Source: Cochliopodium minus
Taxonomy: Eukaryota > Discosea > Himatismenida > Cochliopodiidae
Length of the DNA: 35,683 nucleotides
Direction of reading: 5' to 3'
Assembly: GCA_024220525.1 (NCBI GenBank)
Contig: JAMYWO010000027.1
Location: forward strand, 9,783 to 45,465
Part shown: piece by piece, positions 1,498 to 32,142 of the stretch
Layout: the number at the start of each line of letters is the position of its first letter
How positions within the stretch are numbered: the stretch's first letter is position 1
Position numbers and translations under genes: made by a program
The notes under the pieces: generated by a model
What the model was told of the DNA's origin: nothing
What the model saw: the letters and a program-made list of their open reading frames with translations, nothing else
The model's database searches: none

Positions 1498-4248
1498 ATG
1501 AAGAAAGATGATGAGAGGATTGATAATGATGATTTTAGAATTGTTTTATTGAGAAAAAATGATGAAATATCCTTCAAAGAATCTTTAAAAAAAAGAGACG
1601 ATTACAATTTTACTACTATTGATGAGAAAAATGCACTTCATATCTTTTGTTGGAACAAATATCCCAATCATGAGATGTTGAATATCTTGATGACGAAAAA
1701 AATAGATGTAAATCAAAGAGATAAAAACAAGCAAACACCATTACATATTCTAATGATAAATAAATTCATAGATGAGGAAGTCATAGATACATTATTAAGA
1801 CATAAATGCAATCCAAATCGATTAGATGATGATTATAATAGCCCCATACATTATCTGTGCAAAAATAAGCTATTAAAATCGAATATGATAGAAAAAATAT
1901 TCAAATACGATGTAGATTTACAAGCATTGAATTTGAAGAAAAAGACACCTCTCCATTATTTATGTCAAAATTTAAATTTGAAAGAGGATATGTTCAAAAC
2001 AATAGTTGAAAACAAATCTGATGTCAATCAACTAGATAATAAAGGTAAAGTTTTTAAAGAGGAATATATCAGGAAATTTTAATTGTTAAAAAGGAAATTT
2101 GGCCATACATTATCTATCCCAAAATAAGAATGTGAACTATGAAATGATTAAACTGTTAGTAGAAAATAAATCTAATTTGAATGATAGAAACAAAGCGGGA
2201 AAACATGTTTTACATTATTTTTGCGAAAACGAGAATATGAAATATGAAATGCTCAACTATCTTGTCGATAAAAAATGTGAAATAAATGAATTGGATAACA
2301 CCAACAAGCTTCCTTTGCATTGTGCTTCTATGAATGAAAAAATCAATTTTGAAATATTCAAACTCTTGTTTTCTCTAAACGAAGTAAATGCAATCGATAA
2401 AAATAAAAAAACATTTCTCCATTATTTATTGATCCAAGAGAAAGATAACAAAGAAATTGTTGAACATTTGTTGAAAAATAAATCTGATGTAAAGTTGAAA
2501 GATAACAACGGAAGAACTCCCCTCCACTTTGCCGTTCTCAAAAATTCAAATTCTGAAATAATAAAGCTTTTAGTTCGATATAAATCTGATGTTAACGAAA
2601 CTGACAAAGATGGAAAGACTGGCCTTCATTTCTGTTCATTGAATGAGAGCCAAAATACTGATATTTTGAAATTATTGATAGAAAGCAAATCTGATCTAAA
2701 TGTAAAGGACAAAAATAAAAAAATCCCAATCAATTATTCCACCTTCAACGAAAATTTGAGTTTTGAAAACTTGAAAATACTTGTTGAAAATAAATCAGAT
2801 ATCAACCTCACCGAATACAATAATAAAACTTCTCTCCACTCTGTTTGCTCCAACAAAAAAATTTCAGTTGAGATTGTAACTCTGTTCTTGGAAAATAAAT
2901 CTGATCCTAATGCGCAAGATAACTCTTTTAAAACTCCTCTTCATTACCTTTGTTCTAATCCAAGTGTATTATTTTATTTTCAATTTTATTTTTATTTTTT
3001 TAATATTATTTTTTCTAGATGAGAAGTGGTATGATTGATGTGATGATCAAACACAAATGCAAAGTGAATGTGATCGACAATAAATATATTACTCCTTTGC
3101 ATTTAGCGTGTAAAAACAAAGAAATTGAGCATTTCACTTTACAAATCATGTTGGAGAACAATGCAGAACCAAATCTCATTGATGGGAATGGTAATTGAAT
3201 ACCTTTGAAAAAAATTAATTTTTTTTTTAAAATTTTTATTTCTTAGAAACAACTCCCTTTCATTATGGGTGTTTAAACGTAAATCTTTTTTTAAAAAAAA
3301 TTAATCATTTTTTTTTTGTTAATTTTTTTTTTTCTAACAAGACTGCTTTCTCAAAAAGATACTTTAAATTGTTTTTACAATACAAAGCAGACTTGAACCT
3401 CAAATACTTCAATAAAACACCTCTCCACTTGTACACAATAAATAAAAACATATTCACAAATGTAATTAAATATCTCGTTGAAAACAATCAAGATCCATGT
3501 GAAACAGAAGAAACATTGAAAACACCTCTACATTTTGCTTCATCAAACAAAAGGTAAATAATTTATTTATTTTTTAGTTTTTTATTTCTTTAATTTTATA
3601 TGTTTAGAATAACAAGAGAAACTATCAAATTCTTAATCAATAAAAAAGCAAGTGTGCAAGCATTAGATATTAATAAAAATACTCCATTTGACTTTGCTCT
3701 CTCGAATAGAAACATGTCTCTAGAAATAATCCAGATCATGCACCCTTATATTGATAAACACACCAATGGAATCTCCTTGTTTGAAACAGCTATCCTAATC
3801 AAAAAACCTTTGATTCTTTTTTTTTTAATGTCTAATCACCCAAACACAATCTTCAAATACTCTAATGTAACAAAAAAAAATTTAATATTTTTTTAAATTC
3901 TTTTTTTAATTTTGATCTTTTTTAATTTATTATTTATTCTTTAATTTTTACATAAAAAATTAGAATATATTGAATAGTTTTTCTTGTCCTGAGGGATACA
4001 ACAATTTCGAATGTATCAAAATTGTTGATAGTTTCAACAAAATGAAATTATGGTGCCAAGAGTATCATTACTTGTTCCCTCCTTTTATTAAAGACACGAT
4101 TTTCAATTTCATTTTGATTAACAAGAGTTTTGGATCCAACAAAGTGCCCAAGTTCATTTTATTTTCATTGATACAACGTTTTGTATCTTTTTATGTTTTT
4201 GAACGAGACTACAATAACGATATTTATTTAAACTATAAACAAAAGTAA
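1498..4248 (+). CDS. Ankyrin-repeat protein with C-terminal W-H-LPK module
   Basis: Exons 1498-2044, 2094-2965, 3019-3190, 3247-3278, 3342-3553, 3608-3866 and 3964-4248 total 2379 nt, encoding 792 residues; every phase agrees. The start is the first ATG after an A tract. After a short acidic/basic N-terminus come about 18 ankyrin repeats (about residues 50-690) of the type TPLHYLCxN ... EMIKLLVENKSDVN, so it is a scaffold or binding protein. The repeats are unusually uniform at the ENKSD turn, which suggests recent tandem expansion. The last exon adds a non-ankyrin tail with W728, a following H, FPPF, and then VPKFILFSLIQRFV. That tail resembles ends of the RCC1-like and second ankyrin proteins in this window. 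Partner and pathway cannot be read from the sequence. It may be a ubiquitin-ligase adaptor, by analogy to ankyrin-SOCS or ankyrin-F-box proteins (inference). Confidence 0.93.
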
Positions 4249-4413
4249 TTTTTTATAATTATATTTCTTTTTTAAAAAATTAATTTAATTCATGAAAAAA
4301 AAAAAAATAATACAAAATGTGATTAAATAAGACCCAAATCGTTTGTGAATTGATTTGTATTGATTTCAAATTATATAAAAATAAATAAAAAAAAAATTGA
4401 AGGAGGAGAAAAG

Positions 4414-7400
4414 ATGAACAAGATATTCCCAAAATTCAATAAAAACATTTTCAAGGCCAAATTAAATCCATCCAAATCTTCAAGATATTTGAATAGCAAC
4501 ATCCCAAAGATCAAAATTGAGAAACATAAAGTAAAAATATAAAAAATGTGATTTTATAATATTTGATAGTGATTTTATAGAATGGAATAAATTTAAAGCA
4601 TTGATATTTGATCAAAAAATATTATTCTTTCATTCTTGTTTGAATATTTCAAAAAAAAAAAAAAGAAAAAGAAAAAGAAAAAGAGAAAATTATATCAAAT
4701 AATGATTCAATGATTGTAAATCAAATTCTAATTCTTTGAATGATTATAGAATGCACTCAGATATTTTTCAACGGATAATAATAAAATCAAAGAAGAGAAA
4801 AAAGAGGGAATATTGAAAGAAGATATCACAACAAGAACATCATCATATGAAATCAATTCCAAAGAAAACATAATCAACAACAAAGATCAATCAAAGAAAC
4901 AAAAACCCAAAGCTTCCTCCAAAGAAGAGGAGAAAAAAGAAGCGAACTGGAAGATTTTAAAGACATTCGTAGGGTATTTGTGGCCAACTGCGGAACCAAA
5001 GTTGAAAGTACGGGTTGTTTTGGCTCTCACATTTTTAATAGGAGCAAAAGTAAAACAAAAAATTGTTTTTTTTTTCTTTATTATTTGATTATGTTTAAAT
5101 TTTAAAATTTAATTATTTAATTTCAATTTATTTTCATTTTTTTAAAACTAATTAATTTTTATTTTAAAAAAAGCTTATCAATGTGGAAATTCCATATCTA
5201 TTTAAACAAATAATAGATACATTGAATGAAACTGCTACAGTAACAGGAGCTACTATTCCTATGGCCTTACTTCTTGGGTGTAAAATAATTTTTCAATATT
5301 AACTATATATTTAATTTTATTTTAATAAATTTATTTTAAAAAATTTATTTTTTACTTTTTAACTAGACGGAGCTGCTAGAATAGGAAGTTCTGTATTCAA
5401 TGAATTGAGAAATGTAGTTTTCACAGAAGTTGTGCAGACTGCCATCAGACAGTTGTCAAGAAAAACCTTTCATCATCTACTAAATTTGGATCTCAAATTC
5501 CACCTTGGAAGGTAAACAAATTAATAATTAACCTTTTTTAAATCAAATAACAAATCGCCATACCCTTTAATGAAAGTATTCTTTTATTTTTATGGAAAAT
5601 TTTAATAAAATAATAATTAAATTTATAAAAATGCAAAATTAATAAAACAAAATTTTTAAAAGTAAATTTTAATTATATTTGAATTTTTGAACAATTTTTA
5701 TTAAAAAAATAAAATAGGGAAACAGGAGGTAAAAATCACCTTTATTTTTAAATTATTTTATAGTAATTTAATTAATTAATAAATTTTTATTGAAGCGCTT
5801 TCGAGAGCTTTGGAAAGAGGTACGAAAGGGATCAATTTTGTGATGAATGCGATGTTGTTCCATGTTTTGCCCACCATCCTCGAAATCTCTTTGGTTTCTG
5901 GTATTTTTGCTTATAATTATGGACCTAGTTTCGCTGCTGTTACTATGACAACTCTCGCTACCTATTCTGTTTTCACTTTTTCAATAACCAAATGGAGGTA
6001 AATAAAATTAAAAAATTGAATTAAATTAAATTTTAATTAATTAAAAATAATAAAAATAATAAAATAAAAAAATAAAAAAATAATAAAAATGTAAAAATAT
6101 AAAAATAAAATAATAAAAAAATAAATAATAAAAATAATAAAATCATTAATTAAAATTAATTCAATTTTATTATAGAACACAGTTTAGAAAAGAGCAAAAC
6201 AAAATCGAAAATGAATCAGCAGCCAAGGTGGTTGATTCCCTCATCAATTATGAAACAGTCAAGTACTTCGGAAATGAAAAATTGGAGGCAGACAAGTATG
6301 ATAGTCTTTTGATAAGAGCAAATGAAGTTGGTCTCAAAACTAATGTAACAAAAAATTATTTAAATTTTTAATTTTTTAATTTTAAATTTTTTAATTTTTT
6401 ATAACGTTAAAAATTTATTTTTTATAATATTTCTTTTGATTTTTTTAGACAAGTTTAGCTCTTTTGAATGCAGGACAACAAATCATTTTCAGTGCCGTAA
6501 AAAACTTTTTAAAAATAAAATGAAATGAAAAAAGAAATTAATAAATTAAATATAAAAAAATAATAATTAATTAAATATACAAAAATGAAATAAAAAATAA
6601 AATAAAAAATAAAATAAAATTAATTAAATTTAAATAAAAAAAACAAAAAAAATTATTTTAACAAAGGCATTGACTGCTGTTATGGTTATGGGTACCAATG
6701 GGATTTTGGGAGGAGGGTTGACAATAGGAGATTTGGTGATGATAAATGGTCTTCTCTTCCAACTTTCTTTGCCTCTCAACTTTTTAGGTAGTGTTTATCG
6801 TGAGTTGAAACAATCTCTCATCGACATGGATACAATGTTTAGTCTCTTAAACAAAAAATCTACAATGATTGAAGAAGAAAAAGTAATTTTTTATAATTTT
6901 TTTTTTATTAAACATCATTTTTATTTTTATTTTAAAACATTTTTTATTTTTAAATATTTTCATTTTTCTTTTTTATTAATTTATAGTTAAATTATAATTT
7001 TAGTCAAATTAAATTTTAATTTAAAATTTTAATTTAAAATTTTTTTTTTCATCAGATTTTTATTTTAAAACCAGATTTATTTTTATTTATTTTTTTATTT
7101 TTTCAATTTTCATTTTTCATTTTTCATTTTTAACATTTTAATTTATTTATTTTTTTTTTCCTTCATTATTAGGCTTTGGAAATCAAGGGAGGAGCAATAG
7201 AATTCAAGAATGTTGCGTTCAAGTACGAAGATAGACAAATTTTCAAAAACCTCTCTTTTTCCATCTCCCCTGGCCAAACTGTCGCATTTGTAGGTTCATC
7301 TGGATCTGGGTAATTCAAAAATATGATATACAAAAAAATAATTAAAAATAAATGAAAATAAATAATAAAAAAAGAAAAAATTAGCAAAATGAAATAAATT

Positions 7401-9039: not shown

Positions 9040-9084
9040 AAAATAAAAGAAATAATTATTAAAAAAACTTACGAAATTTTTTAT

Positions 9085-10021: not shown

Positions 10022-12046
10022 ATGGAAAATTATTCTTCAAGCTCTCATGGATACACCAGTTTTTTTTATGATGGTATAAAATTTCTTTTTAAAAAACAGA
10101 ATATCAACAAATTTTAAATTGAATCAATAATTGTGGAATTTGAAAATAAAAAATAAAGAAAAGGAAAAGATAGTTCATGGATGTGGATATAATAATCATG
10201 GTAAAAAATTTGAAAGGACATAAATTCTTTTTTTCAAATATTCTTCAAATCAAAATTAATTTCAATAAAAATTAAAAATAGGGCAATTGGGAAATGGAAA
10301 AACAAATGAAAATAGCAAGATAGTGGAAATTATGAGAGGAATAGATGTGCTATCAATAAGCTGTGGTTTGAACTTTTCCCTCATTTATTGTTCAAACGGA
10401 GAATTATTTGGGATGGGAACCATTTCAATCTTGCAAAAAAAAAAACTAAATGTAAACAAACCAACACTGATAATGAGAGATGGCGAAATAAAATCTATTT
10501 GTTGTGGTAGTAATTTTTCTGTAATTTTGAGAAATGATGGGAAGGTATTGAGAAATTTTGACGAAGAAATTGAAAGCAAAATTAAGATTATTTCTTGTGG
10601 TAACTAAAAATAAAATAACAAAACAATAAAAAAATATGAAAATAAAAATTTGATTCATACAATCTAAAAAAAATTTTAAAAAAAAATTAAAGAATTAACC
10701 TATCAAATTGTTTTCAAAGTAAAAAAATGATCATAAATTAATAAATACTTTTAAAATTTTATTTTTATAAAAAAAAAAAATAAAATATAAAAATACTTTA
10801 ATTTAAAGTTTAATTCTCAATATTCATTTTGAACAATTATAAAGAATATTTTTAAGAAAAATATTGAAATATTTTATATTTTTAAATTAAGGATACAACT
10901 TTTTTTTGATGTATTCAAATGACGAAAAAATGTTTGGGTATGGATCTAATAGTGTTAAACAACTCGATAAAAATTCCATTGAGAACTGTGACAAATCCAC
11001 ATTTATTTTTGAAATTCCTCAAGTAGAACTAATGGAATGTGGCGCTTATCATTCTTTGATTTACAAAAAAAATGATGATTTGATAGGATGGGGAGATAAC
11101 AGTACAATTTTTAAATTTTTAAATTTTTTCTTAATTTTATTTTTTAAATCTTTTATTTTTTATCTTAATTTTTTTGTGTTTTTTGATGATTTTATTTTTT
11201 ATGTTATTTTTATTATTTGTTTTTTTGTTTTACTTTGTTTTTGTGAAAATTTTTTATTTCAATCTTGAAATCATTTTTTTTAGATTCTGGTCAATTAGGA
11301 TTGGGAGAAATGAAAGGATCAATAGGAACCCCAACTTTGATTTTGAACGACAAAACCATCAAACAAATAAGTTGTGGGTATTACCACAGTATGTTTTTAA
11401 CTTTTGCCAGTGAGTTGTTTGTTTTTGGACTTATTGAGAGTGGAAAAGTAAAAATCATAATTTTTTAAATTTTTCTTTTTTCACTTTTCATCAAAATTTT
11501 TTTCAATTTATAAATAGATTGGAACAGGAAACAACTATGTCTCATATTCTCCAAAAAAACTGGAAACTAATAAAGAAGAAATTAGATATATTTCTGCTTG
11601 TTCACTTCAATCCTTTTATTACACCGAAAAGGGAGATATTTTTTCATTCGGATTTAACTCGTAAAAAAAATTTTTTATTTTATCTTTTATTAAAACTTTT
11701 CATTTTAACGTTTATTTATTTTTATTCAAAAGTTAAAAATGAATTTTTTTAAAAATTTTTAATAAGATATGGTCAACTTGGTCTTGGAAATTTATGTGCA
11801 AATGTAATAAATCCACAAAAAGCTTTCAACAATCCAAACCTCTCAATTTTTGTTTCAAGATCAACCAGTAACAAGAGGGTGTGGACTCCTGAAAAACACA
11901 TTAACTTTTCAACGGTTTTTAAAGAAAATACTTCAGCTTTTGTTAAATGTTTGAAATGCAAACAAATTGTTTGGAATTTAAAACTTCCCAAATTCATTTT
12001 GTTTGAGATAATCAAGTTTTATTCTTCTCCTCCAAACAAATTCTAG
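10022..12046 (+). CDS. RCC1-like repeat protein with C-terminal W-H-LPK module
   Basis: Seven exons (10022-10073, 10159-10200, 10282-10599, 10892-11101, 11284-11447, 11518-11660, 11767-12046) total 1209 nt and 402 residues, all in phase. The body is a divergent RCC1 beta-propeller. Repeat cores include HGCGYNNHGQLGNG, ISCGLNFSLIY, MECGAYHSLIY, GWGDNNSGQLGLG, ISCGYYHSMF and FGFNSYGQLGLG. Several exon ends fall inside the CG-G turns. The propeller ends near residue 330. The tail carries WTPEKHINF (W349), a Cys-x2-Cys pair, and LPKFILFEIIKFY, matching the tails of the two ankyrin proteins here. RCC1 propellers can be guanine-exchange or protein-binding platforms. With so divergent a propeller, exchange activity on Ran is unlikely (inference). 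A partial copy of its promoter and first codons follows the gene. Confidence 0.88.
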
Positions 12047-12057
12047 AAAATAATGAT

Positions 12058-15370: not shown

Positions 15371-15989
15371 TTAATAATCTAAAATATTTTATTCAATTTA
15401 TTGTTATTTTGGAAAAAAAATTAAAATATTCAATTTTATTCTATAATTGTTTAAAACAATTAGATGGGAAATGAATATTGCAACAATATATATATTTACT
15501 CTCTTTTCAAAAATAAAAATATAAATAAATAAATTTTTTTATATTTTTTGATATTATTGCGATGGAAAATATGAAAGAAAAGTAAGATATTCAATTTTTT
15601 TAATACCTATTTTTGATTTTAATGTATTGAATAGAATCTATTTTTTTTTTTTATTTCGTTCTTTAAAATTTTTTTTATATTTTTTTATTTGAACAAAACA
15701 AAAAATGTTGGAAATGAACATAAAATTGTTTACAAAAAAGGGAATGATTTAAAAGAGGATTGAGATATTCAATAATTGTTATTATTAAACCAAAAATAAT
15801 TTTTATCTGAAAAAAAATATTCAAAATATTGATAAAGTGATTATGAAGATATTGATTAAGATTCATTTTGAAAGTTAGATATTTGATGAAATAAACTAAT
15901 ATTTTACTTTGGATCATATGTATTTGTTAAACCAGAAAAGATTGGTATCAAATTTTTAAATTATTAAAAAAGGAGAGTTGATTTCAACA
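15371..15989. other. 619-bp divergent intergenic region
   Basis: Separates the PH-domain gene (-) from the EngA gene (+). Composition is A/T simple sequence with T tracts at about 15640-15690. A minus-strand open frame of about 80 codons lies inside (15675-15917). It is a run of Ile/Phe/Leu/Asn codons as expected of A/T-rich spacer, so I do not call it a gene. Both promoters must lie here, but I see no defined motif. Confidence 0.6.
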
Positions 15990-18900
15990 ATGAAAAGTTT
16001 AATAGGGAATATAAATGGAAAATTTAATTTCATTTCATTCAAGAATACAATCAAATATTCCTTCAAATTAACTCCCATCAATCTATTCAACAAAGAGATG
16101 TATCTCTATTCAACAAGAATAAAGAAAACAATGAAGATAAAGCCAATATCCAAAATCGAAAAGATGGAAGAGGATGAAGAAATAAAGATAAACAGGAAGG
16201 ATAGGAAGAAAACCAAACTTGAGGGGAAAAATAAAACAATAATAAAACAAAAAGATAGGGATGGAGAAATAGATGAGAATGATGAGAATGAAATAGGGTT
16301 AGGAGATATAATGGAGAGGACATTCGACAACGAAGAAGAGGAAGAAGAATTTGTAAGCAAATTGAGGATGAGAAAAGAAGAGAAGAATGCACTGTTAAAA
16401 CCATCAGAAGATTTTCAAAACATAGAGAAGCTTAATTTCAGCAAAAAATACGATTATGATTTTTCGAATCTTGACATTGAAAAAGTTACCAACAAATGGA
16501 AAGGAAGGATCTTGGAGCACAAAAAACCAGTGATCGCTATTGTGGGAAAACCGAACGTCGGGAAGTCAAGTTTGTTCAACAGTATCATTAGGGAGAACAA
16601 GTCTTTGATCACTGACATACCCGGGACCACCAGGGACAGAATTTACGGGAACTTTGAGTGGAGAGGGCATCACTATGTTGTAACAATAATTTTTTTAATA
16701 TTTTTAAAAAGATCCATTATTTTTTATAAACTTTTGGAATATTTTTTATTTTTATATATTTAACTAAACTTTTGGATTATTTTTGAATTATTTAGTATAT
16801 TTTTATTCTCTTGTCTTTAAAAATTAATTTATAATTTTGTTTATCAATAAATAATTATTACTTTCTTTTCTCTTGTTTTAGTAAATAAATAAATAGTATT
16901 TAATAAAATTATATCCAAAAATTTCATTTAAAATAATAATTATTTTTTTAAAATCTTTTTATTAGTTGGTTGATACAGGTGGAATGATGAACGATGAAGA
17001 CTTTTTTTCATCGAGCATTACCGAACAAGCAAAAATCGCAATAGACGAAGCGGACATAATCATTGCTATGATCGACTACAAACAGGGGATCGACAATTCT
17101 GACCAAAAAATATTGAGGATATTGAGGTCCAACAAGAAGAAAACTCCTACTTTATTAGCTGTTAACAAAGTAGATAACGACAGTAGATTAGCAGAAGCTC
17201 AAGAATCAAATTTAGAAAGGTATAAAATCAATTTTTTTTTTGATTATTTTTTAAAAATATTGCAAAATTTTTCACATTCAATATATTTTTGTTTATTTTC
17301 AAAAATTTTTATAAATTATTGATTATCTAATAATTACAAAATTTTTTTACATTCAATTTATTTTTTGTTTATTTTTAAAATTTAAATTCTTTTATTAAAT
17401 TTTACTTGATTATTTTTTATAAACTTTAAATTTTTTTTTGAAAGATTGGGATTTGGAGAACCATACTACATTTCTGTTTCCCATTCTTTGGGAGTCATGG
17501 ATTTGTTAGACAAATGTACCGAGTTGAAACCTTTTTTCAAGGAAGAAGAAGATCAAGAACTCAGCAAATCTTCCAAAAAATGTGAATTCACTTTCCTTCT
17601 TTTACTATATTTTTTTAAATTTTTTTTTTAAATTTTCTTTAAAATATTTAGCAAGTAAAGATTTAAGGGAAGAGGATAATTACATTAAAAACAAAAGCAT
17701 AAAGATCTCTGTTGTAGGAAGTCCCAACGTAATCCTTTTTTTTTTGATCATTTAATTTTAATTATTTATTTTTAATTTTTAATTTTTTTTTTCAATTTAA
17801 TATCACAGACAGAATATTTTTATATTTTCGAAATAATTATCTAATTTGATTTTTTGTAGTAATATTCATATAAAAAACGAGCATTTCTTAATATTTAAAA
17901 ATCTGAAAATTTTTTTTTATTAAATTGCCATTTTTATCACTTTTTATCATTAATTTTAAATTTAATTCATGAAAAAATCCTTAATTGTTTTGTTTATTTC
18001 TTTGTAAAATAAATAAAATAAAATAAAATGAAATAAAATAAATAAATAAATAAATAGAAATATAATAATAAAAATAAAAATAAATAAGTAACATTTTTAT
18101 TTAGGTTGGGAAATCAAGCATTCTTAACAGAATTTTGGAGAGGAAAGATGTATTGTAAGCGAAGTAGCAGGCACAACCCACGACGTAATAGATACCCCAA
18201 TTGTTTGAAAGAAGAAACTCCCATCACTCTCATTGACACCGCCGGAATTACTAAAGAGCAAAGAGAATCAGGGGTTTGGACAGATCTTGTTTTGTGGTCT
18301 ATGAAAGCTGTTGAGAGATCCGACATTTGTGTGTTAGTAGTGGATGCACAATTAGGTATTATTTTTTCTATTTTTTTCTATTATTTTGATTTTTATATTT
18401 TAATTTAATTACTTTTTAAAATTTTTGATTTGATTTTTCATTTTTCATCAGATTTATTTTATTTTTTTCTATTTGATTTATTTGCTTTTTAAATTTTGAT
18501 TTGATTTGATTTTTCATCAGATTTGTTTTAATATTTATTTTTTTATTTTCCATTTTTATTATTTTTTGATTTTATTATTTTAATTTAGTTATTTATTATT
18601 GATTTTTAAATTTTTATTTTATTCATTTAAATTAATATCAATTTCTAATTTTTATTTTAATCAATTTAAATTTTAATTTATTAAATCAGTTGTTTTTGAC
18701 TATTATAAAATTTTTTTCATTTTTTAAAAAGGAATCCATAATATCGAACAAAAGATCTCAAACATTGTCTCAAGTATGAGATCCACCATCGTCGCAATCA
18801 ACAAGTGTGACTTGCTCATCAACCAAAGAGAAGAAACCAAAGAAGAGTATGAAGAACTAGTAAGAAAGGAGCTAAAGTTTATGTCTTGGGTTCCCATTAT

Positions 18901-21263: not shown

Positions 21264-24200
21264 ATGGAAAATATCAATAAAGATAGTGACACATTTCCTG
21301 GTGTGAGATTGAGAGGTACATCCATCTTCAAAGCCAAGAATAAAAGCTTTGAATCCTTCGATAATCAGTTTTGGAAGGACAAATTCTTCGAGAAGGATAC
21401 ATCCTTCTTCCTATCTACCAATCTCACAGAGTATATTAATGAGCGCATCGACAAATACGATGAATATACCGATGAATATGTTTTGGGTGAAGAGTTTAAT
21501 GAGGATCCAAGGAATGAAGCGATTAAGAATGATAGATTGGATGATATTGATGATATTGATAATTTTGAATTGCATAATGTTGATCTGATTGAAGATGAAG
21601 GAAATTTACGTTATAACGAAGAAAATATTCAAAAAAATAATAAATCAAGTTTTGATGGAGATGTTCTTTGCAGGGATAAAATAGATGTCCTTAATAATGG
21701 AATAAAGAAAAAGAAAAAGCCTATCATCAATCCCAAGGAGAAGAATGATACTCTCAATAAGAATATCATCGATAAATATACAAGAAGCAACATCAAGGAT
21801 AATGGGGGGGATAAAGATCAAGGAAAAAGGAATAAAGAAAATGANNNNNNNNNNNNNNNNNNNNNNNNNNNNNNNNNNNNNNNNNNNNNNNNNNNNNNNN
21901 NNNNNNNNNNNNNNNNNNNNNNNNNNNNNNNNNNNNNNNNNNNNATCGATAAATATACAAGAAGCAACATCAAGGATAATGGGGGGGATAAAGATCAAGG
22001 AAAAAGGAATAAAGAAAATGATAATAACAAAGAAATGAATGGTGATAATAAAGTGGAAAACAAATCAGATAAAGATTTCGTCAAAAATAATAAACTCAAA
22101 ATGATAAATGAAAAAAATGAAAATAATATCAATAAACAAGAAGATAAAGATAAAGAAGATAAAAAAGATTTGGAAGAAAATGACTCGGATTTGAAAGATA
22201 ACTCTGAAAATTATCTTTCTAAAAAAACATCGAATAGAATCAACTACATTCATAACAAGGAAGTTTTCAACAGCAAAGATAACACCCCTGTCCTAAGGAA
22301 GATGTCCAGCAGCGTCAACGACAGCGTCATTTTCTCCAGCACATCTTTTCAAGATGAGGAATCCATTTACCTGGAGAATCAGAATATCATCAAAATCATT
22401 AGTGATATGACCCAAAAAGAAGAAGTAGATCTCGACAGTACAACCAATTTGGCACAAGTTAAATTTTTTTTACAATTTTTTATTTTTTATTTTTAATTTA
22501 AAATTTTTAATATTTTTTTTAATCTTTCTTTATTTTGAATTATTTTAATTTCTTGAATATTCGTTAGATTGTGGAAATATCAAAAGAAAAGAAAAATAAG
22601 TCAGACACGTATTTAAATGCAGTGGAAGAGTTTTTGTCTTCAGAAAGAAGGTACGTTGCGAGTTTAGTCACCTTTGTAGTTTTTTACAAAAGAGTCCTAG
22701 AACAAAATTCTCACAGTAAAATTTAAAAAATTAAAATTACTCCAATAAGAATTAAAATTATAAAAAAAGAAAATAAAAATAAAAAAAGAATAAATTTAAA
22801 TTTAAAAATTAAATTAAAAATAAATTTAAATTTTAAATATTTTTTATTAAATAATTATCAAAATTTTTTCAATTTAATTTTTAACAATAAAAGTTGTACT
22901 GAGGAAAGATCAGTTAAAAGGTTTGTTTTGTAACATAGCGGATATTACAAGGCATCACGGAGATATCATCCACAAAATCTTCGAAGAACAGAAAATCAAC
23001 AATGGAGAACTCAACATGTCTTCTGTTTTGAAAATCATCCCCAGGTTGCTCGTCACTGAGGAGGCTTATAAAGAGTACATTATCAAGCAAGAAGAATGTG
23101 AAAATGTTTTGCAAAGGCTTTTGAAAAATAAAAAATTTGCTGCATTTTTTGGTAATTATTTTAATTATTTTTTAATTATTTATTTATATTATTTTTTTTT
23201 ACAAAATTTTTTTTTAATTTTAATTTTTTTTAATTAATTTATTTTTACAAAATTTTTTTTGTAGAAAGATATTGTGGTAGCACTGTTAGTAAGGGAAAAG
23301 GGTTGAATGTAATCACTTTGGAATTTAGAAGTTTATCAATATCCCCTGTTCAAAGATTTCCGTAAAAATTTTTTATTTTTTTTAAAAATATTTTTTGAGA
23401 TTATTTATTTTATTCTTTTATTATTTCAATATTTAATATATTTTTTTTGCAGGAGATATGTCCTTTTGATGGAAACTATACTCTCGAGAATGAATAAAGA
23501 TGATCCATTGTACCCTGAAGTACAAAAAGCAAGGGAAAAAGTGGATGTATTTTGTAAAACAATCAATTCTCATCGAGCAAATGTAAAAATGAAAAATATT
23601 GAAAAAAAAAATAAAATGAAAAAAATAAAATGAAAAAAAAAAAAAACAAAAATATAAAAAGAAAATTAATTGAAAAAATATTAAAAAAAGAAATAAAATA
23701 ATAAAAATAATTAATTTTTTCAAAAGCAACAATTAGATGGCTTGGAAAAAATAAAGAAAGGAAAGGTTAATCTTTTAAGGGATTCTGTTCAAGACGTGAG
23801 AAGTACAATTAAAGGGAGCCCTCCTCACGAATTCAAACAAAGTAAAAAACTAAATATAATTTAAATTAAAAATCCAAAATTAATTTTTTAAAAAAGATTT
23901 TGATTTAATTTAATTATTATTTTATTTTAAAAACAACAAAAATTAAAATAATTTTTCAAAAGTAAAAATGAACGAAGCGGAGTATTGTTATTCTTGCAAA
24001 AATGTGATAACCACCAAAAGGGAGTTGAAGTGCAAAGTTTGTGGAATTTTTTGTCACATCAGTTGCAGCAAGATAAACAACTGCGTTGGAAAATCTCCCA
24101 CTCCACAACCCATATTTCAAGCAAGAAATTTAATCAGGTAGTTATTTTTAAATTTTGATTTTTATTATTTTTATTTTTATTTAATTTTTATTTTTGTTTA

Positions 24201-24699: not shown

Positions 24700-26729
24700 A
24701 GATTCAGAAGTCAAAGGATTGAAAGCAGCAGAAGAGTTGCTAAACTTGAAAAGAGGACGATTAACCTTGGAAATCTCCGAAAGAGAATTGGTAGACTTTT
24801 CATCAATGAGATGACTAGTGATCAACCTCTCTATCTCCGACTCGAGAGATCTCCAGAAGAACTGAATGGAAAAGTTCTCCATTCCAATGGAAGTTTCCTT
24901 CTCCGAGTTTTTGAGGCTTTCTTCGGTCATTCGGGAGATTTGAAGGTGGTTTCTAAGGATGTTTTGGGAGTGGTTGAAGAGATGGCAAAAAAACCTTGAA
25001 AGAAGGTTTGTTTGTTCTCCTAATTTTTTTTATTTTTATTTTTGTGAATTAAAATTTTTTTAAAATAAATACATTTTAATTAATTATATTTTTATAAAGA
25101 AAAATGAAAGTATTCTATATTAATTAATTGATAGATAAAGAAATAAATTTAAAAGTATTTTTTTAAAAAAATTTTCTTAAAGAAATTTTAATTCATAAAT
25201 CAATAAACAAAAGAATTCATTTTTTATTTATTTTGTGAATTTAAAAAAAATAATTAAAAACTTTTTTCAAAATTAAATTCAAAAAGCTTTAAAAATTTTT
25301 TTACCAATGAGAGGTTCAGAAGTAGGATCAACATCCCTTTTCTTGGAAACAGAAGAACGAGAATGACTCTTATGAAACTCCAACAAACGAGTGACCTGCT
25401 GCTTATAATTGTAATCAAAAGAATCCTGAATTTCAGTGGTGACATAACGTATGCTCCCTAACAAGTTGAGAGCAGCAACAACACTTTGCATCTTCTGAAT
25501 TTTCTGCTCCTCCTTTAGTTTGGCTTGGATGAGCTCGGAGACGACTTCTTTGCTTTGGAACATCTTGATTGGCTCCACTTCTTCGTAGGAGATGTTTTCT
25601 TCGGGTGTGTAGATTATTTCGTTAAGGTATTTTACTATCATATCTGGGAATTTCTAGTTTTAAAATGTTAAAATAAAAAAAATAAAAATAAAAAAATTAA
25701 AAAATGTGAAAACAATAAAAATTTAAAAAAGAAAAACAAAATACTAAAAATATTAAATATTAAAAATAATAAATTTATAAATAAGAAAAAATGAAATTTT
25801 AAAAAATAAAAAAAATAAAAATAAAAAAATTTCTTACGTTTTTTAGTTCCCAAATTGTGTTTATTGTTTTTTTAACTGCAGGTAAACTGTCAATATCTTC
25901 GTCAAGACTCAACTCTATGGCATTGTTGATGAGTATTGCTGCTTCTTTCCATTCTGTTTTGTTCACATGCTCCATAAATTTGTCAGGAACTTGTGAAATT
26001 GTTTCTCTTTTTTAGAAACAAAAAGATTGATATTAAATTAATCTTTTATGAAATTTCTTTGAATGAAAATTTTTGAAATCTGTTTATAAAAGTATGATGT
26101 ATTGAAATTCAAAGAATAATTGATATCACATTATCTTTATAATTCAAATAATTCTCCAAAAAAAAAAAAATTTGTTTGGGGATGCTGATTGTTCCCTTAA
26201 TAACATTATCTTTTGTAGTTTTGATTGATAAAGTTTTTTGTAAAAAAATTTCATCTCATATTAAAACAGAATATGATCTTTGAAGGATCTAATTGCAAAT
26301 AATTTGTTGAATTTATTTTTACATTTTATCCAATGTGTCCAACATATAATCCATGGTTTCTTTAGTGGTTGCCAATTCAATGAATTCCTTGGAATGATTT
26401 GCCATCAATCTCTGAGTATTCTTCAAATTGGAACGAAGGGTATGAATGCTGCTCTGGGTTTGTTGGATCTGCTCAATAATTGCACCAAATGAACTAATAC
26501 TGGTATTGAAACCTGTTTTATGGCAATCTACGATGATCTCCAGCCATTTATCCAATTTCTTCTTATGCTCGTTCAATTTCTCCAATTCCCTCTCTGGATT
26601 GGACTGCTGCAATACCTTTAAGATATATTCCAGCGAATTGAATCCACCAGAAGTGAATTCAGATGGGAATCTATCCATCTCCTCCTTGATCCTCTTCAAT
26701 TCTTTGTTAATATTAATCTCATCTTCCAT
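24700..26729 (-). CDS. SEC8: Exocyst subunit Sec8/EXOC4, N-terminal part only
   Basis: Subunit of the exocyst, which tethers secretory vesicles to the plasma membrane (family knowledge). Exons 26323-26729, 25838-26006, 25305-25653 and 24700-25019 give 415 residues in phase. Sec8 features in order: an N-terminal coiled coil (LEKLNEHKKKLDKWLEIIV, then IEQIQQTQSSIHTLRSNL), the DTLDKIETISQVPDKF turn, EWKEAAILINNAIELS, IWELKNKFPDMIVKYLNEI, and LFKFSNSSAAFNPL, which matches the LFKF segment in the middle of animal EXOC4. Family members are usually about 950-1200 residues, so the C-terminal half is missing. The last exon ends in a GTAATC donor at 24699 that points into the Rho GEF gene. Intron 1 is 316 bp and holds an A13 tract. 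Confidence 0.9.
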
Positions 26730-26896
26730 ATTTCTTTTCTGTAAATAATAAATCCAATGTAAAAGACTTTGATGAAATAAATATGTCTTATTCCTTCAAC
26801 ACAGAATCAAATAAATAAATACAATTTTTTTTTTTTGAATAATTTAAATAATTTAAATAATTTTGAAAGATCATGAAACAATCATAACAACAAAGC

Positions 26897-28411
26897 TTAA
26901 AGTTCACCACAGTCAGTAATGACGATTTTTCCACGTGGTTTCCCGCTTTGAGAACCTTGTGCTTCAATAAGTTTGACGACATTCATTCCATCAATAACTT
27001 CTCCAAAAACACAATGGGCTCCCTAATGTTTTTAATTTGACAAAAAATAAATAAGTATTCGTTCAAAAAAAAAGTAAGAATTTGAAAAAAAAAAAAGAAA
27101 ATTTTACATTCAAATGAGGAGTAGGAACAGTGGTGATGAAAAATTGAGATCCATTAGTATTTTTCCCAGAGTTAGCCATGGACAACACTTTTAAAAAAAA
27201 TTTTAACAAATTGTTTAAAAAAAAATAATAAAGAAAAAAATAATAAAGAAAAATAAAAAAAAATTTTACTTCCAGGTTTGCTGTGTTTAACTTTGAAGTT
27301 TTCGTCTTTAAACTTTTCTCCGTAGATACTTTCTCCTCCGGTTCCGTCTCCTCTTGTAAAGTCACCTCCTTGTAACATGAACTTTGGAATAACTCTGTGG
27401 AAAGCGCAACCCTTGTAGTGAAGAGGTTTTCCAGATTTACCTTTCTGTCGAAAAAAAATTACGATTAAAATATTAAAAAAAAAAAAATCAAAGAAAAATT
27501 TTTTACTCCTTTTTCTCCAGTACACAATGCACGGAAATTGTGGGCAGTTTTAGGTACAATGTCATAGTAGAGTTTCATTGACTAAAACCCCAATAAATTA
27601 TCAAAATAAATCAAAAAATTATTAAAAATGTTTACAATTCTTCCTAAACTTTTGTTTCCCAAAGAAACATCAAAAAATACATTTGGATTTTCTTTCTTTT
27701 CTACGACCTTTGTTTTTTTGTTAGATTCAGTGGTTTCTTCTTCTTTATTTTGTTGATTGTTTTGGTTATTTTGTTGGTTGGATTTTTGGAGCAAGTAAAT
27801 TTTATTTCCGTACAAATCCTTGAGGATGATTCCTTCTCCTTCTTCCTTTTTTTCTAACGTACCTTCAAATTCGATTTTCTAAAATAATGATTTAAATGTT
27901 TTAATATTTAAATAATTATATTATAAAAATAAATAATAATCATAATTACTCTTGAAAGATATTCGTTGTAGGTGTTTTTGATATCAGTTGATGTAATCAC
28001 AAACAATGGAAAATCTCCTGCTTGTTTTCCGATGATTGGATATGATTCATCTCCTTGCTTACACAATCCCAAAGACAAAACGATATCTTGTCTTGGTAAT
28101 TTGATGGTTACCTAAGAAAATCAAAATGGGAAATTAAATATAATGAAAAATTAATTTTCTTTCTTTTTTTTTACAAATCTTTTCTCAGATTTTTCTCCAT
28201 ATTTTTGATCATCTTTTACTTCGAAATTCAATTTTTTGTAGAAAGTTATTGCTTCATCATAATCTTTCACTGTGTTTTGTTAAGGGGAATTAAATTGGTT
28301 TGTTATTTAATTTGGAATTTTGTTACCCAATAAGCAAATAGATCTGATATGAACGTTAATTTTTCTTTTGTTATTGTTATTGTTATTATTGTTATTGTTA
28401 TTTTTACTCAT
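26897..28411 (-). CDS. VOC (glyoxalase-fold)-cyclophilin fusion protein
   Basis: Eight exons (28327-28411, 28175-28269, 27950-28111, 27636-27878, 27507-27581, 27270-27444, 27108-27187, 26897-27022) sum to 1041 nt and 346 residues. After a poly-Asn start, residues about 18-145 are a VOC-superfamily unit: [17 protein letters not shown], then [18 protein letters not shown] and [14 protein letters not shown]. The positions usually holding metal ligands (His in strand 1, Glu in the last strand) are Ser and Tyr, so metal-dependent glyoxalase activity is unlikely. A Gln/Asn/Lys/Glu linker leads to a full cyclophilin (178-346), a peptidyl-prolyl isomerase with FHRVIPKFM (Arg237), Gln245 and QFF (Phe295) intact and a divergent-loop insertion ([11 protein letters not shown]). 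The usual cyclosporin Trp is His303. There is no signal peptide, so it is probably cytosolic or nuclear. The fusion is supported by continuous phase across every intron. Confidence 0.95.
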
Positions 28412-28874
28412 TGTGAGAATATCTTCAATAATTGATTTTTTATTTTATTTATAATTTTTGATTTGAGAAAAAATTAAAAAAAGAGTGAGATAAATACTTT
28501 TAAATTTGATTGATGAAAGATGAACAAATTTGGAATTCCTTGAACATGTTATTGATTGAAATATTTTAATTTCAAATCATTTGTATTCAAAAAAAAAAAA
28601 ACATCACAAAGTTTAAACCATATATATGATATTTTGGACGCTCCGATGAATAATTGCTTTTAATTTTCTAATAAAAGAATTATCCTTCAATGAAATTATT
28701 TTTTCTTTTTTCAAAATTTATTTTGTTGAATAATTGATTCTATTCAAAATCATTGAAGAGAATCATCTGTTTTGCTTTATTACCTAAATTTTTTTGATGA
28801 TGATAATGCAAAATTTTATATAAAAATAAATATTTTAAAATAAAAAAAATTTGTTTGTTACTTAGAGAATAAAA
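28412..28874. other. Divergent intergenic region with TTC-A13 tract
   Basis: Lies between the VOC-cyclophilin gene (-) and the subunit e-like gene (+). It contains a TTC followed by A13 at about 28586-28601, a motif also seen before the Rho GEF and Sec8 genes. The remainder is A/T spacer. A short minus-strand open frame at 28740-28946 overlaps the next gene's first exon and lacks coding character. I see no RNA gene. Confidence 0.55.
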
Positions 28875-29636
28875 ATGACCTCTACATATTGCAATAGATC
28901 TGGATTGATTAGTGTAATTAAATAGAAAATAATAATTATTTGACAAAAGAGCATAATATAAATATTATAAAATTAATAACACATATATTTTTTGATTGTT
29001 AAAAAAATTTAAACAATCAAAAAATATTTTCTAAAATGTGATCCTCTTTTATAAATCTAATAAATCTTGATAATATAATTAATCTTTAAGCAATATATTC
29101 AATTAATTATATTTTACTCTTCATAGAAATATATCTTGAAATATCTTATAGACTTTAAGAGATTATGATTACTTTATAACTTTATTGAACATTATTTTAT
29201 ATAGTTTTTGAGATGGACAGTACCAATAGCTGGATTTTGGTATGGTAAAGAGAAATTACAATTTCTCCGCGAAAAAGAAGGAGAATATCATTGGAATAAA
29301 GAATTAAGATTACAAGCAAAGATCAAACAAGTTGAAGCAGTCAAAAACAAAGAAATAGATGAAATTAATAAAAAACATCAAGACGTAATTGCAAATTATG
29401 AACTCGAATTGTTGAAAGCTTCTGGCAAATGGACTCCTCCTTCTACCTCCTCTTCTGATAAGACTGATTCTTTAAGATTTGTGGAATCCTTGCTCGATGG
29501 TAAATGGGAAGGATGGATGGATGATTATGTATCCAACAAACTCTTCCAGGATATTGCCACCGCATTCGAGAAGAACGATGAATCTTTCTTTTTGAATTCA
29601 TCTCAAGCTATCCTCGACAAAATGAACCAACTATAA
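28875..29636 (+). CDS. Putative mitochondrial ATP synthase subunit e
   Basis: Two exons: 28875-28913 (13 codons, MTSTYCNRSGLIS) and 29205-29636, joined in phase over a 292-bp intron, 156 residues. The second exon is certain by codon content. The first is inferred because exon 2 has no usable ATG and opens right after a TATATAG acceptor. The N-terminus has a short hydrophobic helix with Arg before it and G-x3-G inside it (RWTVPIAGFWYG), followed by a charged helix (KLQFLREKEGEYHWNKELR). This is the layout of subunit e, a small inner-membrane protein that helps F1Fo dimers form. The match is by pattern, not strong identity. The C-terminal 75 residues (KWTPPSTSSS ... WEGWMDDYVSNKLFQDI) exceed the usual length and are not recognised. 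Confidence 0.5.
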
Positions 29637-29706
29637 ATTAATTTGCTTTATAAGAAGAAAATAATATAAACAAAAATAACAAAAAAAAATATATATATTT
29701 TATAAT

Positions 29707-32142
29707 TTGAAAAAAATTGAGGATCATGCTTGTGAAAATAACAACATCCCATTTTCTATTATCAAATATCTGATTGAAAATAAGAGTGAGATCAATTCTA
29801 AATATTCTATTATAGAAACACCACTGAATTTGCTTTGTAGAAATAGGGGTATTCTCTCATTAGATAAAATCAAGTATATGATAGATAAAAAGAGTGAAAT
29901 TGGAAATAATCTTCAAATAATATGTTACAATCCATTGGTGACGATGGATATAATAAAATTTTTCGTTGAAAGTGATGGATTGGAAAAAGCAAAAAATTAT
30001 GATTCGATATTGAATTTGATGAGGAATAGAAATGGGAATTATGAAATGATAAAATATCTCATTTCAAAGAGATTTCAATTAAATTTTTATTATAAAAAAT
30101 ATAATTTGATGAATTATGTTTGCAATAATGAACAAGTAGATTTGGAAACAATAAAAACATTGATTGAAAATAATTGTGATTATAACAACAAAAATGATAG
30201 ATTATTCCCTATCCATTATCTTTGTAAAAATGAAAACGTGAAAGTAGAAATGTTGGAGTATCTCATCGAAAAGAGAGCATTTTTGAATTATTCGAACGAA
30301 TTATGTAAATCTCCACTTATTTTACTTTGTGAAAACAAAAAGGTGACAGTGGAGATGCTACAACTCATGATAGAAAACAAAAGTAATTTGAATGTTTTAG
30401 AAGGTGAAGAATATCTTGGGGTAGAACCTCCCGAAGAAGAATCCAGTGAAAGTGATTCTGAATACGAAGTTCATTTTTGGGGAGATCATAGTCTATTGCT
30501 GGATTATTTTTTCGATTATCCTATTTCAATTAAAGGGAACATTCCTTATAAAAACCTTTTTTTCAATGAAAATATCAATGTAGAGAATATTGTAAAGTTC
30601 ACAATCCCTTTTCTTTGTGCTGGATTTGATGTTAGAAGGAGTTTATTTGATCTAGGGATTTATAAAAATTTCAATCCATTGTGCGAAGAAGTGAATAAAT
30701 TCCTTGAAAATGGAGATGTGTGGAATTTTGAGACACATATTTATTTTTCTAAGCAAATCAAAGAAAAAATAACAACATATTTGATTGCCTTCAAAATATA
30801 TTCGAAAAAGAAAAAGTTGGGTATATTTCCAAAACCTCTCAAAGGAATCATAATGAGACATTTTGTGAATTCTTATTTGGTTGAAATTTTTCGCAAAAAT
30901 AGTCATCTTTATTATAGGGAGAGTTGGAGTAACAAAGAAGATGAACTGAGTGATAGTAATTTAAATTTTTTATTTCAAGATGATCTCAAAGAAGAAGATT
31001 TGATTAGTTTTTTAGAAGATGATGGATACCTAATTTTTTTTTTGAATTCTGAAGGAGAAACACTATTTCATCGGGCTTGCACAGATTCCCAATCATCAAT
31101 AGTTGTTAAGTATTTTTTTGAAAATAAATGTGATATTAATGCAAAAAATTGTGAAGGCAATTTCCCATTATTATTAGCGTTAAAGAATTACAACAAAAGA
31201 GCATCAATGGATATTTTTGAATTTTTAATTCATTCAAAGTGTGACATTAATCAAGTTGGTAATAATGGTAGGTCTGTTTTACACCAAATTTGCCTTTCAA
31301 ATGTTTTTGAACAATCTAAAAACAATAATTATTCGATTGAATTGAAATTAATACGATTATTGATCGAAAATAAATGTAATTTGAATTTGAAAGACAATCG
31401 TGGTCGCACTCCTTTACATTATCTTTGCAGAAACTACTTTTATTTGTGCGAAAAAATTAAAAGTTTGGTCGAAAACAAAAGTCATTTAAATATCATTGAT
31501 GAAAAGAATTTGAATCCTTTCCTCTTACTACTTAAAAAAAGCAATAAATACGACGCTGGAGCCAAAATAACTCCTGAAATAATTAGATATATGATCAACA
31601 TTAAATCCAACATCAATTATGAAAATAAAGGAGAAATGTCACCTTATATTCATTTTATTTTGAAAGAGTTCAAGAAAGATAGCATTAATGAACTTCAACA
31701 ATATTTCATCCCCTTTCTTTGTTTGGGAATAGACTTTGATTTTTTCAACGATTATTTTATTTTTAGCTCAAAGGAAGAATCTGAAGTCTTTTTGAAACAA
31801 AAAGACAATTATTTGAAAATTTTTGTCAAATTTGAAAAGGGTTTGCTTTGGAATCCTTTGAATCATAAATATTTTTTGGAGGAAATTAACTCTTTGGTTC
31901 TTTGTTTTTTTCTTTGTACCAAAGTATTTTCTAAAAGTAGAAGGATTGTAATCACTAAATCTGCTAAGATTAAAGTCATAAAAATGTTTGTTGATAAATA
32001 TTTGAAAGAAAAGAATTCTCAACAATGGGATGTTGTCGAAAATGACAAAAATAATGAAAATAAAAGAAAGGGTGTTGATTTGAGTGATGAAGTTGGAGAT
32101 TACAAATCAAAATCTATTTCAAATAAAAAAATCAAAAAATAA
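29707..32142 (+). CDS. Ankyrin-repeat protein with duplicated W-H module, start unclear
   Basis: One uninterrupted frame of about 811 codons, unlike the seven-exon ankyrin gene at 1.5 kb. It is built as two similar halves. Ankyrin-like repeats (ENKSEIN, FPIHYLCKNENVKVEMLEYL) are followed by an IPFLCAGFD segment and a W-x4-H...FPK block (W codon at 30721). A second ankyrin run (RTPLHYLCRN, LIENKCNLN) is followed by IPFLCLGIDF and a second block (W codon at 31849). It ends in a basic tail with KRKGVDL and KSISNKKIKK, possibly nuclear. The frame is open from 29680 but has no ATG until 29878, which would skip the first repeat. No upstream exon is visible in the 70 bp after the previous gene. It may be 5'-truncated or may start at 29878. 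Function is probably protein binding. Confidence 0.88.
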   Translation: MKKIEDHACENNNIPFSIIKYLIENKSEINSKYSIIETPLNLLCRNRGILSLDKIKYMIDKKSEIGNNLQIICYNPLVTMDIIKFFVESDGLEKAKNYDSILNLMRNRNGNYEMIKYLISKRFQLNFYYKKYNLMNYVCNNEQVDLETIKTLIENNCDYNNKNDRLFPIHYLCKNENVKVEMLEYLIEKRAFLNYSNELCKSPLILLCENKKVTVEMLQLMIENKSNLNVLEGEEYLGVEPPEEESSESDSEYEVHFWGDHSLLLDYFFDYPISIKGNIPYKNLFFNENINVENIVKFTIPFLCAGFDVRRSLFDLGIYKNFNPLCEEVNKFLENGDVWNFETHIYFSKQIKEKITTYLIAFKIYSKKKKLGIFPKPLKGIIMRHFVNSYLVEIFRKNSHLYYRESWSNKEDELSDSNLNFLFQDDLKEEDLISFLEDDGYLIFFLNSEGETLFHRACTDSQSSIVVKYFFENKCDINAKNCEGNFPLLLALKNYNKRASMDIFEFLIHSKCDINQVGNNGRSVLHQICLSNVFEQSKNNNYSIELKLIRLLIENKCNLNLKDNRGRTPLHYLCRNYFYLCEKIKSLVENKSHLNIIDEKNLNPFLLLLKKSNKYDAGAKITPEIIRYMINIKSNINYENKGEMSPYIHFILKEFKKDSINELQQYFIPFLCLGIDFDFFNDYFIFSSKEESEVFLKQKDNYLKIFVKFEKGLLWNPLNHKYFLEEINSLVLCFFLCTKVFSKSRRIVITKSAKIKVIKMFVDKYLKEKNSQQWDVVENDKNNENKRKGVDLSDEVGDYKSKSISNKKIKK

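What the first reader, a model, noticed from the sequence alone, without database searches (positions are those of the whole stretch)
4050..32012. One C-terminal module (W-x4-H ... LPKxIL) shared by ankyrin and RCC1-like proteins
Four blocks in three proteins have the same layout: a Trp, four residues later a His, then hydrophobic/Phe-Pro and a helix, then a basic gap and a (V/L/F)PK-x-I/L-x-I helix. They lie at 4050-4195 (LWCQEYHYLF ... VPKFILFSLIQRF), 11879-12022 (VWTPEKHINF ... LPKFILFEIIKFY), 30718-30885 (VWNFETHIYF ... FPKPLKGIIMRHF) and 31846-32010 (LWNPLNHKYF ... AKIKVIKMF). The front ends differ (ankyrin repeats or an RCC1 propeller), as expected of a portable adaptor tail. The closing helix resembles an F-box or SOCS-type helix, and the F-box gene in the same window has LPKFILAKILCYL. 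I know of no named family for it. A ubiquitin-ligase adaptor role is inference.
Basis: partly seen in the sequence, partly recalled or inferred. Interest (0 to 1): 0.75.

Follow-up and report, generated by a model that had tools for sequence, protein, structure and literature searches.

The report
Portable C-terminal tail on recognition proteins
A roughly 50-residue protein tail that matches no family in the libraries searched sits, in hundreds of copies in one protist-like genome, behind very different recognition domains (ankyrin, RCC1, leucine-rich repeats, a lectin, a membrane protein, even copies of a ribosomal stalk protein), which suggests one shared docking plug, perhaps for protein-destruction machinery.

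Summary
A profile built without the window copies finds just the four blocks in the window (i-E 2.5e-17 to 5.6e-12; next 0.079). In the 44.65-Mb genome holding the window the block occurs at 294 or more places; a reversed query finds none. It is a mostly C-terminal module of about 50 residues: W-x4-H-x2-F-P, a hydrophobic helix ending C-x-K, a basic loop, then [FIL]-P-K-[PFY]-[LIV]-x3-I-I. Fronts of 73 labelled blocks: ankyrin 47, RCC1 17, P0 paralogues 3, LRR 1, lectin 1, transmembrane 1, unassigned 3. In 15 of 15 RCC1-type pairs the tail is better conserved than the front. No coherent Pfam, NCBIfam, PHROGs or PDB sequence match. The SOCS reading fails (BC box 0 of 64). F-box and PRANC models do not match, but 61 of 64 carry the published poxviral C-terminal F-box signature at one fixed place. 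Best reading: a constant docking tail, a Skp1-type ligase linker being the likeliest partner I can name. Partner identity is inference; structure models were too weak to decide.

The parts
4045..4206 (+). block A, C-terminal tail of the first ankyrin gene (LWCQEYHYLFPPFIKDTIFNFILINKSFGSNKVPKFILFSLIQRF)
   Evidence: open frame 3964-4245; leave-window-out HMM i-E 9.9e-15
11876..12043 (+). block B, extreme C-terminus of an RCC1-like gene; the stop codon follows at once
   Evidence: open frame 11753-12043; HMM i-E 2.5e-17; RCC1 repeats upstream in the same stretch, L036
30715..30891 (+). block C, internal copy between two ankyrin arrays
   Evidence: HMM i-E 4.7e-16
31846..32016 (+). block D, near the C-terminus of the same protein; P-K pair lost
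   Evidence: HMM i-E 5.6e-12
1483..4248 (+). ankyrin gene 1 with AT-rich introns, carries block A (gene model by eye)
   Evidence: Ank_2 E 1.9e-14 and 1.9e-53 in two open frames
10023..12046 (+). RCC1-like gene with introns, carries block B (gene model by eye)
   Evidence: RCC1-like exons
29680..32142 (+). ankyrin gene 2: ankyrin - block C - ankyrin - block D in one open frame
   Evidence: Ank_2 E 4.6e-25; two HMM domains
962..1333 (-). neighbouring F-box-like ORF (LPKFILAKILCYL), not counted as a member of the module
   Evidence: PF12937 E 0.063, below cut-off; not among the block HMM's matches

Best explanation
The block is an amplified, mostly C-terminal docking module: a short helix-loop-helix element, preceded by a W-x4-H-x2-F-P cap, that plugs many different recognition domains into one common partner. 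Of the partners I can name, a Skp1-type linker of cullin-RING ubiquitin ligases is the most likely, which would make these proteins substrate receptors built back to front compared with ordinary F-box proteins (recognition domain first, ligase plug last), as in poxviral ankyrin/PRANC proteins. Shown here: the module, its copy number, its mostly C-terminal place, its varied partners, fewer protein-changing than silent differences between close copies, and tail-over-front conservation in the RCC1 group. Inferred: that it folds as predicted, that it binds one partner, and that the partner is Skp1-like. I give about 0.75 to 'constant docking tail' in all, of which about 0.4 to 'ubiquitin-ligase linker'.
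For: 294 distinct places (E <= 1e-3; E <= 3e-5 for the consensus query) from three queries (merged); reversed query 0; 5 of 5 fetched weak places real. Six kinds of front end. Residues from block to the end of its open frame: median 7, <=15 in 42 and <=50 in 59 of 67. In 15 of 15 pairs of six RCC1-type loci (six of the 17 blocks labelled RCC1) the block (57-79% identity) is more alike than the alignable RCC1 part (41-60%). 38 of 39 pairs with pN < 0.30 have pN < pS (pairs not independent). W in 63, K at column 32 in 59, P in 61, K in 61 of 64; H in 52, N in 11. Poxviral C-terminal F-box signature (from passages of PMC6232478) at fixed columns in 61 of 64; 63 of 64 anywhere against 17.9 on average (largest 27) in 200 shuffles. 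The genome has five Skp1_POZ matches at 4 places, 29 cullin matches on 8 contigs and at least 150 F-box matches over cut-off, so the machinery is there.
Against: No scored Pfam F-box, F-box-like or PRANC match on a block place and no SOCS match at all; profile-profile with F-boxes 2.3%, aligned to the first rather than the second helix. The most conserved residues (W, H, C-x-K, P-K) are not F-box hallmarks (recalled) and F-box helices 2-3 have no counterpart. AlphaFold2 on the four window blocks: pLDDT 68, pTM 0.44, no Foldseek match better than E 4.9. Block C is internal. The transmembrane and P0 fusions are not typical ligase receptors. The hydrophobic, acid-poor core (71 acidic of 2281 residues) could fit a membrane or another partner. 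In one close pair pN is not below pS, and two further close pairs have ratios of 0.83 and 0.48.
Confidence: 0.4

Rival explanations
1. A constant docking tail for one shared partner that is not a ubiquitin-ligase linker (a cytoskeletal, trafficking or translation scaffold).
For: Same anatomy as above; the W-x4-H-x2-F-P cap and the P-K motif match no ligase box tested; fusion to P0 paralogues of the ribosomal stalk and to a transmembrane protein.
Against: 61 of 64 carry the C-terminal F-box signature at a fixed place; ankyrin array plus C-terminal plug is the known layout of PRANC and ANK/BC (passages) and of ASB proteins (recalled).
Confidence: 0.35
2. A short membrane-associating tail: two lysine-bounded hydrophobic helices that dip into a membrane.
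For: Columns 24-34 and 47-56 are mostly hydrophobic, acid is almost absent, K at the borders; one copy follows a membrane-span-like segment (L068, by eye).
Against: Hydrophobic runs are only about 10 residues; W, H, C-x-K and P-K are fixed as in a specific interface; it is fused to P0, RCC1 and LRR fronts and occurs twice in one protein.
Confidence: 0.12
3. A structural cap or dimerisation element that only closes repeat arrays.
For: It usually sits behind ankyrin or RCC1 arrays, once behind an LRR array.
Against: It also follows P0, a lectin and a membrane linker, which need no repeat cap; block C is followed by a second ankyrin array; the sequence is kept across different partners.
Confidence: 0.1
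4. A true SOCS box, as in ankyrin-and-SOCS-box proteins.
For: Similar length and ankyrin linkage; a C followed some 13-15 residues later by a P-x-P helix.
Against: BC box 0 of 64 (shuffles mean 2.7); PF07525 0 candidates; profile-profile 0.1%.
Confidence: 0.03

Closest known systems
PRANC / poxviral ankyrin-F-box proteins (PF09372)
   Same: Recognition repeats first, a short plug last; signature hydrophobic-P-x2-hydrophobic-x3-hydrophobic near the C-terminus (consensus from passages of PMC6232478, layout from passages of PMC3185573).
   Different: No HMM match (8 sub-threshold genome hits, 0 on 294 block places); has a W-x4-H-x2-F-P cap; fronts beyond ankyrin; in a cellular genome in hundreds of copies.
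F-box (PF00646, PF12937)
   Same: A Pro-led helix that looks like F-box helix 1; this genome has at least 150 F-box matches.
   Different: 0 of 150 scored matches of either model overlap a block; the block ends where F-box helices 2-3 would begin; mostly at the C-terminus.
SOCS box / ASB proteins and ANK/BC proteins
   Same: Ankyrin array plus a short C-terminal ligase plug.
   Different: BC box 0 of 64; no PF07525 match.
RCC1-BTB and other cullin-3 receptors (recalled)
   Same: RCC1 propellers used as recognition domains of ligase receptors.
   Different: The block is about half the length of a BTB domain (recalled). BTB was not searched for as such; only the Skp1_POZ relative was.

Membership tests
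The module itself (four blocks one family) | each window block found by a profile built without window copies | tested here: met
   4 of 4, i-E 2.5e-17 to 5.6e-12; next 0.079
The module itself (four blocks one family) | linked to varied binding domains | tested here: met
   ankyrin, RCC1, LRR, legume lectin, P0, transmembrane
The module itself (four blocks one family) | predicted structures superimpose | tested here: inconclusive
   B: helices 2-10, 25-45 and 51-62, pLDDT 68; C and D only from one unreliable model, pLDDT 36, with the same two-helix order; A not folded on its own; no superposition made
F-box | match to PF00646 or PF12937 | tested here: not met
   0 of 150 scored matches of each model overlap 294 block places (lists capped at 150 of 481 and 469 candidates); 1 of 64 blocks at E 0.074
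F-box | helix 1 Pro-led signature | tested here: met
   61 of 64 at fixed columns; the signature alone is weak
F-box | binds Skp1 | not testable with these tools
   needs experiment or a complex model
PRANC | match to PF09372 | tested here: not met
   8 genome hits, none over cut-off, 0 of 8 on block places; 0 of 64 members at E <= 1
PRANC | C-terminal place after ankyrin repeats, truncated F-box | tested here: met
   median 7 residues to the end of the frame, 67 copies; ankyrin within 2 kb upstream in 44 of 69; whether it is a truncated F-box is the open question
SOCS box / ANK-BC | BC box [TSP]-L-x3-[CSA]-x3-hydrophobic | tested here: not met
   0 of 64
SOCS box / ANK-BC | match to PF07525 | tested here: not met
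   0 candidates in the genome

The most novel reading that the evidence does not exclude
A further kind of ligase plug, next to F-box, SOCS box and BTB, evolved or was amplified in this organism: several hundred receptors with varied front ends (repeats, lectin, transmembrane, even the ribosomal stalk protein P0 with its acidic tip partly kept) feed one cullin-type machine through the same W-H/P-K tail, giving a cell-autonomous recognition repertoire.
Probability: 0.3. Interest if true: 0.85.

Novelty: new variant of a known kind. Interest (0 to 1): 0.62.

Why it matters
It would name a domain that labels hundreds of proteins of one eukaryote and make their shared partner testable with one pull-down. 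If the partner is Skp1-like, the back-to-front ankyrin plus ligase-plug design known from poxviruses also exists, on a far larger scale and with more kinds of front end, in a cellular genome; if the partner is something else, a new hub is found. The P0 fusions put the tail on paralogues of a ribosomal stalk protein; I know of no description of such a fusion, but did not search the literature for it.

Tried and rejected
SOCS box: PF07525 in the genome, BC-box pattern, hhalign: rejected. F-box and PRANC as family members: hhalign 73: not members by profile. An F-box placed behind the block in the same gene (C4, C146): the fetched DNA shows a stop codon after the block and then a separate F-box frame. 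Under the block profile the best of these 41 stretches reaches i-E 2.4e-4, over the first half only, which the pattern itself selects; one (L109) looked more complete by eye but scores i-E 5.2 and lies antisense inside a long phage-like frame. Phage records: E 4-5 only; plasmids: none at E <= 1. Apart from the PDB and this genome no eukaryotic sequence collection was at hand, so absence elsewhere is not shown; I recall similar W-x4-H ... FP ... LP-x-E-L tails in ankyrin proteins of algae and other amoebae, which no call tests. Structure: four-block model pLDDT 68, no Foldseek match better than E 4.9; 811-residue single-sequence model pLDDT 36; pdb_via not available. A DNA search for W-x4-H codons in the window was uninformative (25 matches). 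Rfam on the window: 0. NCBIfam (64 members) and PHROGs (12 members): weak single hits only. Print: searches listed no paper whose title or abstract describes this module; PMC11550330 was seen in passages and section 10, PMC3185573 and PMC6232478 in passages, the rest as search listings.

Full report
What is in the window. The window is part (contig C27, 9783-45465) of a 44.65-Mb genome in 598 contigs. It is AT-rich (GC 17-30% per 2 kb), has intron-bearing genes of eukaryotic kind (MIT, PH, Sec8_N, cyclophilin and NDK over their Pfam cut-offs, RhoGEF below) and no tRNA or Rfam match. No tool names the organism. An Anaeramoeba-like protist is my guess from recall; the published A. ignava genome is 80.65% A+T (PMC11550330 section 10) and the window about 75-76%, so this is not shown.

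The observation. The four blocks lie at 4045-4206, 11876-12043, 30715-30891 and 31846-32016 (+). A profile built from 66 blocks of other loci finds these four and nothing else of note in six frames of the window (i-E 9.9e-15, 2.5e-17, 4.7e-16, 5.6e-12 in that order; next 0.079). The 66 were collected with a first profile of 11 copies that included the window's, so the test is of mutual kinship, not of blind discovery; the reversed-query control below covers chance. Two of the four sit in one protein, ankyrin-block-ankyrin-block.

How many. Rows with E <= 1e-3 (all 150 rows, which end at 3e-5; 108 of 150 rows; 65 of 148) merge to 294 distinct places. The consensus read backwards gives 0 candidates; the tool notes that an empty answer by itself shows little, but it is the right control for composition. 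Five places taken from the weak end (E 3.7e-4 to 1e-3) and not used in the profile are all real blocks (5 of 5, i-E 1e-10 to 1.3e-18). A few places have stop codons inside and a few are near-identical neighbours, so the number of intact genes is lower than 294 places, while the caps make the place count a lower bound.

The module. From 80 held sequences (79 loci and the window) 69 distinct block frames were taken (one block per open frame, so block C was not counted again). Alignment A2 holds 64 copies: the four window blocks and 60 others; dropped were two with masked letters, four near-identical ones and the three loci that repeat window copies. Columns: [L]-W(63 of 64)-[NS]-x-x-x-H(52, N in 11)-x-[YF]-F(53)-[PS]-x-x-hydrophobic-K-x-x-[IV]-F-x-F-L-L-C(46)-x-K(59)-x-F-S-K, a basic loop of variable length, [FIL]-P(61)-K(61)-[PFY]-[LIV]-L-F-x-I(52)-I. 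Columns 16-52 hold 71 acidic and 401 basic among 2281 residues, while the upstream parts of long frames have 13.0% acidic and 13.7% basic. Of 39 pairs with pN below 0.30, 38 have pN below pS. Of 67 placed copies the block ends a median of 7 residues before the end of its open frame; 42 within 15 and 59 within 50 (splicing behind the block is not excluded).

The partners. Local ankyrin and RCC1 profiles put ankyrin repeats within 2 kb upstream of 44 and RCC1 repeats within 2 kb of 12 of 69 blocks; 13 had neither. A label at long distance can belong to a neighbour (for one, L077:484-858, the RCC1 hits lie 1.6 kb off, behind another block). Reading the 13 by eye and adding four later loci gave the labels of 73 blocks: ankyrin 47, RCC1 17, P0 3, transmembrane 1, LRR 1, lectin 1, unassigned 3. 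The LRR protein (L046) has LRR_6 at E 4.7e-36 in the same open frame as the block. L124 joins a legume-lectin domain (PF00139, E 1e-8, two exons joined by me) to the block. L068 has, by eye, a membrane-spanning segment followed in the same frame by the block; its upstream repeats match no Pfam family. Three paralogues of ribosomal protein P0 (C233, C156, C285; PF17777 over cut-off) carry the block in one exon between the P0 C-terminal part and a short acidic end such as ESDDGIFDLFN, while the canonical-looking P0 (C31, 328-codon frame ending GLFGDDD) has none.

Front and tail. In 15 of 15 pairs of six RCC1-type loci the tail is more alike (57-79%) than the alignable RCC1 part (41-60%), as expected if the tail meets a constant partner and the fronts meet varied ones. 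I did not make this comparison for ankyrin-type genes. On a tree of 73 blocks (58 columns, 4 of 70 inner branches starred) partner kinds are clustered: 10 changes, least possible 6, shuffled mean 24.1, as low in 0 of 200. So, as far as so short an alignment tells, fusions were few and then amplified; the tail is portable but not freely shuffled.

What family. Sixty-four members against Pfam at E <= 1: 21 families hit by one member each, best E 0.0078 to an unrelated one, F-box-like once at 0.074. NCBIfam (64 members) and PHROGs (12 members) gave nothing coherent. Profiles A1 and A2 against the PDB: 0 at E <= 10. Pfam F-box and F-box-like models each give 150 scored matches in the genome and PRANC 8 sub-threshold ones; none overlaps any of the 294 places. 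SOCS_box gives none. Profile-profile probability with six SOCS boxes is 0.1% and with five F-boxes (one of them the window's own ORF) 2.3%, the latter aligning the first, not the second, helix of the block; these small yardstick alignments were mostly typed from recall, and SOCS against F-box itself scores 0.1%, so this test has little power. Published patterns say more: the BC box is in 0 of 64 (shuffles mean 2.7), the poxviral C-terminal F-box pattern is in 63 of 64 (shuffles mean 17.9, largest 27 of 64) and at one fixed place in 61 of 64. In 33 of 64 the same pattern also occurs at the first F-P (31 have both), so the block may be built of two similar Pro-led helices.

Structure. AlphaFold2 with the four window blocks gave, for block B, helices 2-10, 25-45 and 51-62 of 68 residues, pLDDT 68.4, pTM 0.44; Foldseek found no PDB match better than E 4.9. 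The second ankyrin protein folded alone gave pLDDT 35.9; it shows two helices in blocks C and D too (349-365 and 376-397; 721-740 and 755-766), which I count as a hint only.

Mechanism. Shown: a conserved, mostly C-terminal tail on varied recognition domains. Inferred: it docks one partner. The choice of a Skp1-type linker rests on the fixed Pro-led helix signature, on the same layout in poxviral ankyrin proteins (passages of PMC3185573 and PMC6232478), and on the presence of Skp1-like and cullin genes. Against it stand the missing profile matches and the W, H, K and C residues that no ligase box tested here has. I give 0.4 to the ligase reading, 0.35 to another shared partner, 0.12 to a membrane tail, 0.1 to a structural cap, 0.03 to a true SOCS box.

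Novelty. As a sequence family it has no name in the libraries searched; as a kind of thing (portable C-terminal docking plug) it is known. Six literature searches listed no paper whose title or abstract describes it; the library holds open-licence papers only, and a domain cannot be searched there by its letters.

Noticed in passing
L081/L032 (C233), L082 (C156), L126 (C285); canonical-looking copy L080 (C31): Three diverged paralogues of ribosomal stalk protein P0 carry the block where the flexible linker should be and keep a short acidic, F-containing end; the canonical-looking P0 has no block.
   Followed up: partly
L125 (C4) and L124 (C146): In two places a separate F-box gene starts within about 250 bases downstream of a block-bearing gene on the same strand; the window too has an F-box-like ORF next to ankyrin gene 1, on the opposite strand.
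   Followed up: partly
window 15978-18408, +: An apparently intron-bearing gene with two GTPase stretches (MMR_HSR1 E 1.7e-15, and 0.0014 below cut-off) that looks like a bacterial or organellar Der/EngA-type protein (name recalled).
   Followed up: no
whole genome G000: At least 150 F-box matches over cut-off (lists capped at 150 of 469 and 481 candidates) beside Skp1_POZ matches at only 4 places: a very large F-box repertoire.
   Followed up: no
window about 21800-22000: A run of masked letters (N) inside an open frame, flanked on both sides by the same repeated peptide.
   Followed up: no
L068 1762-4183, +: Gene that by eye has a secretory-looking start, glycine-containing repeats and one membrane span whose following tail is the block: a possible receptor.
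   Followed up: partly
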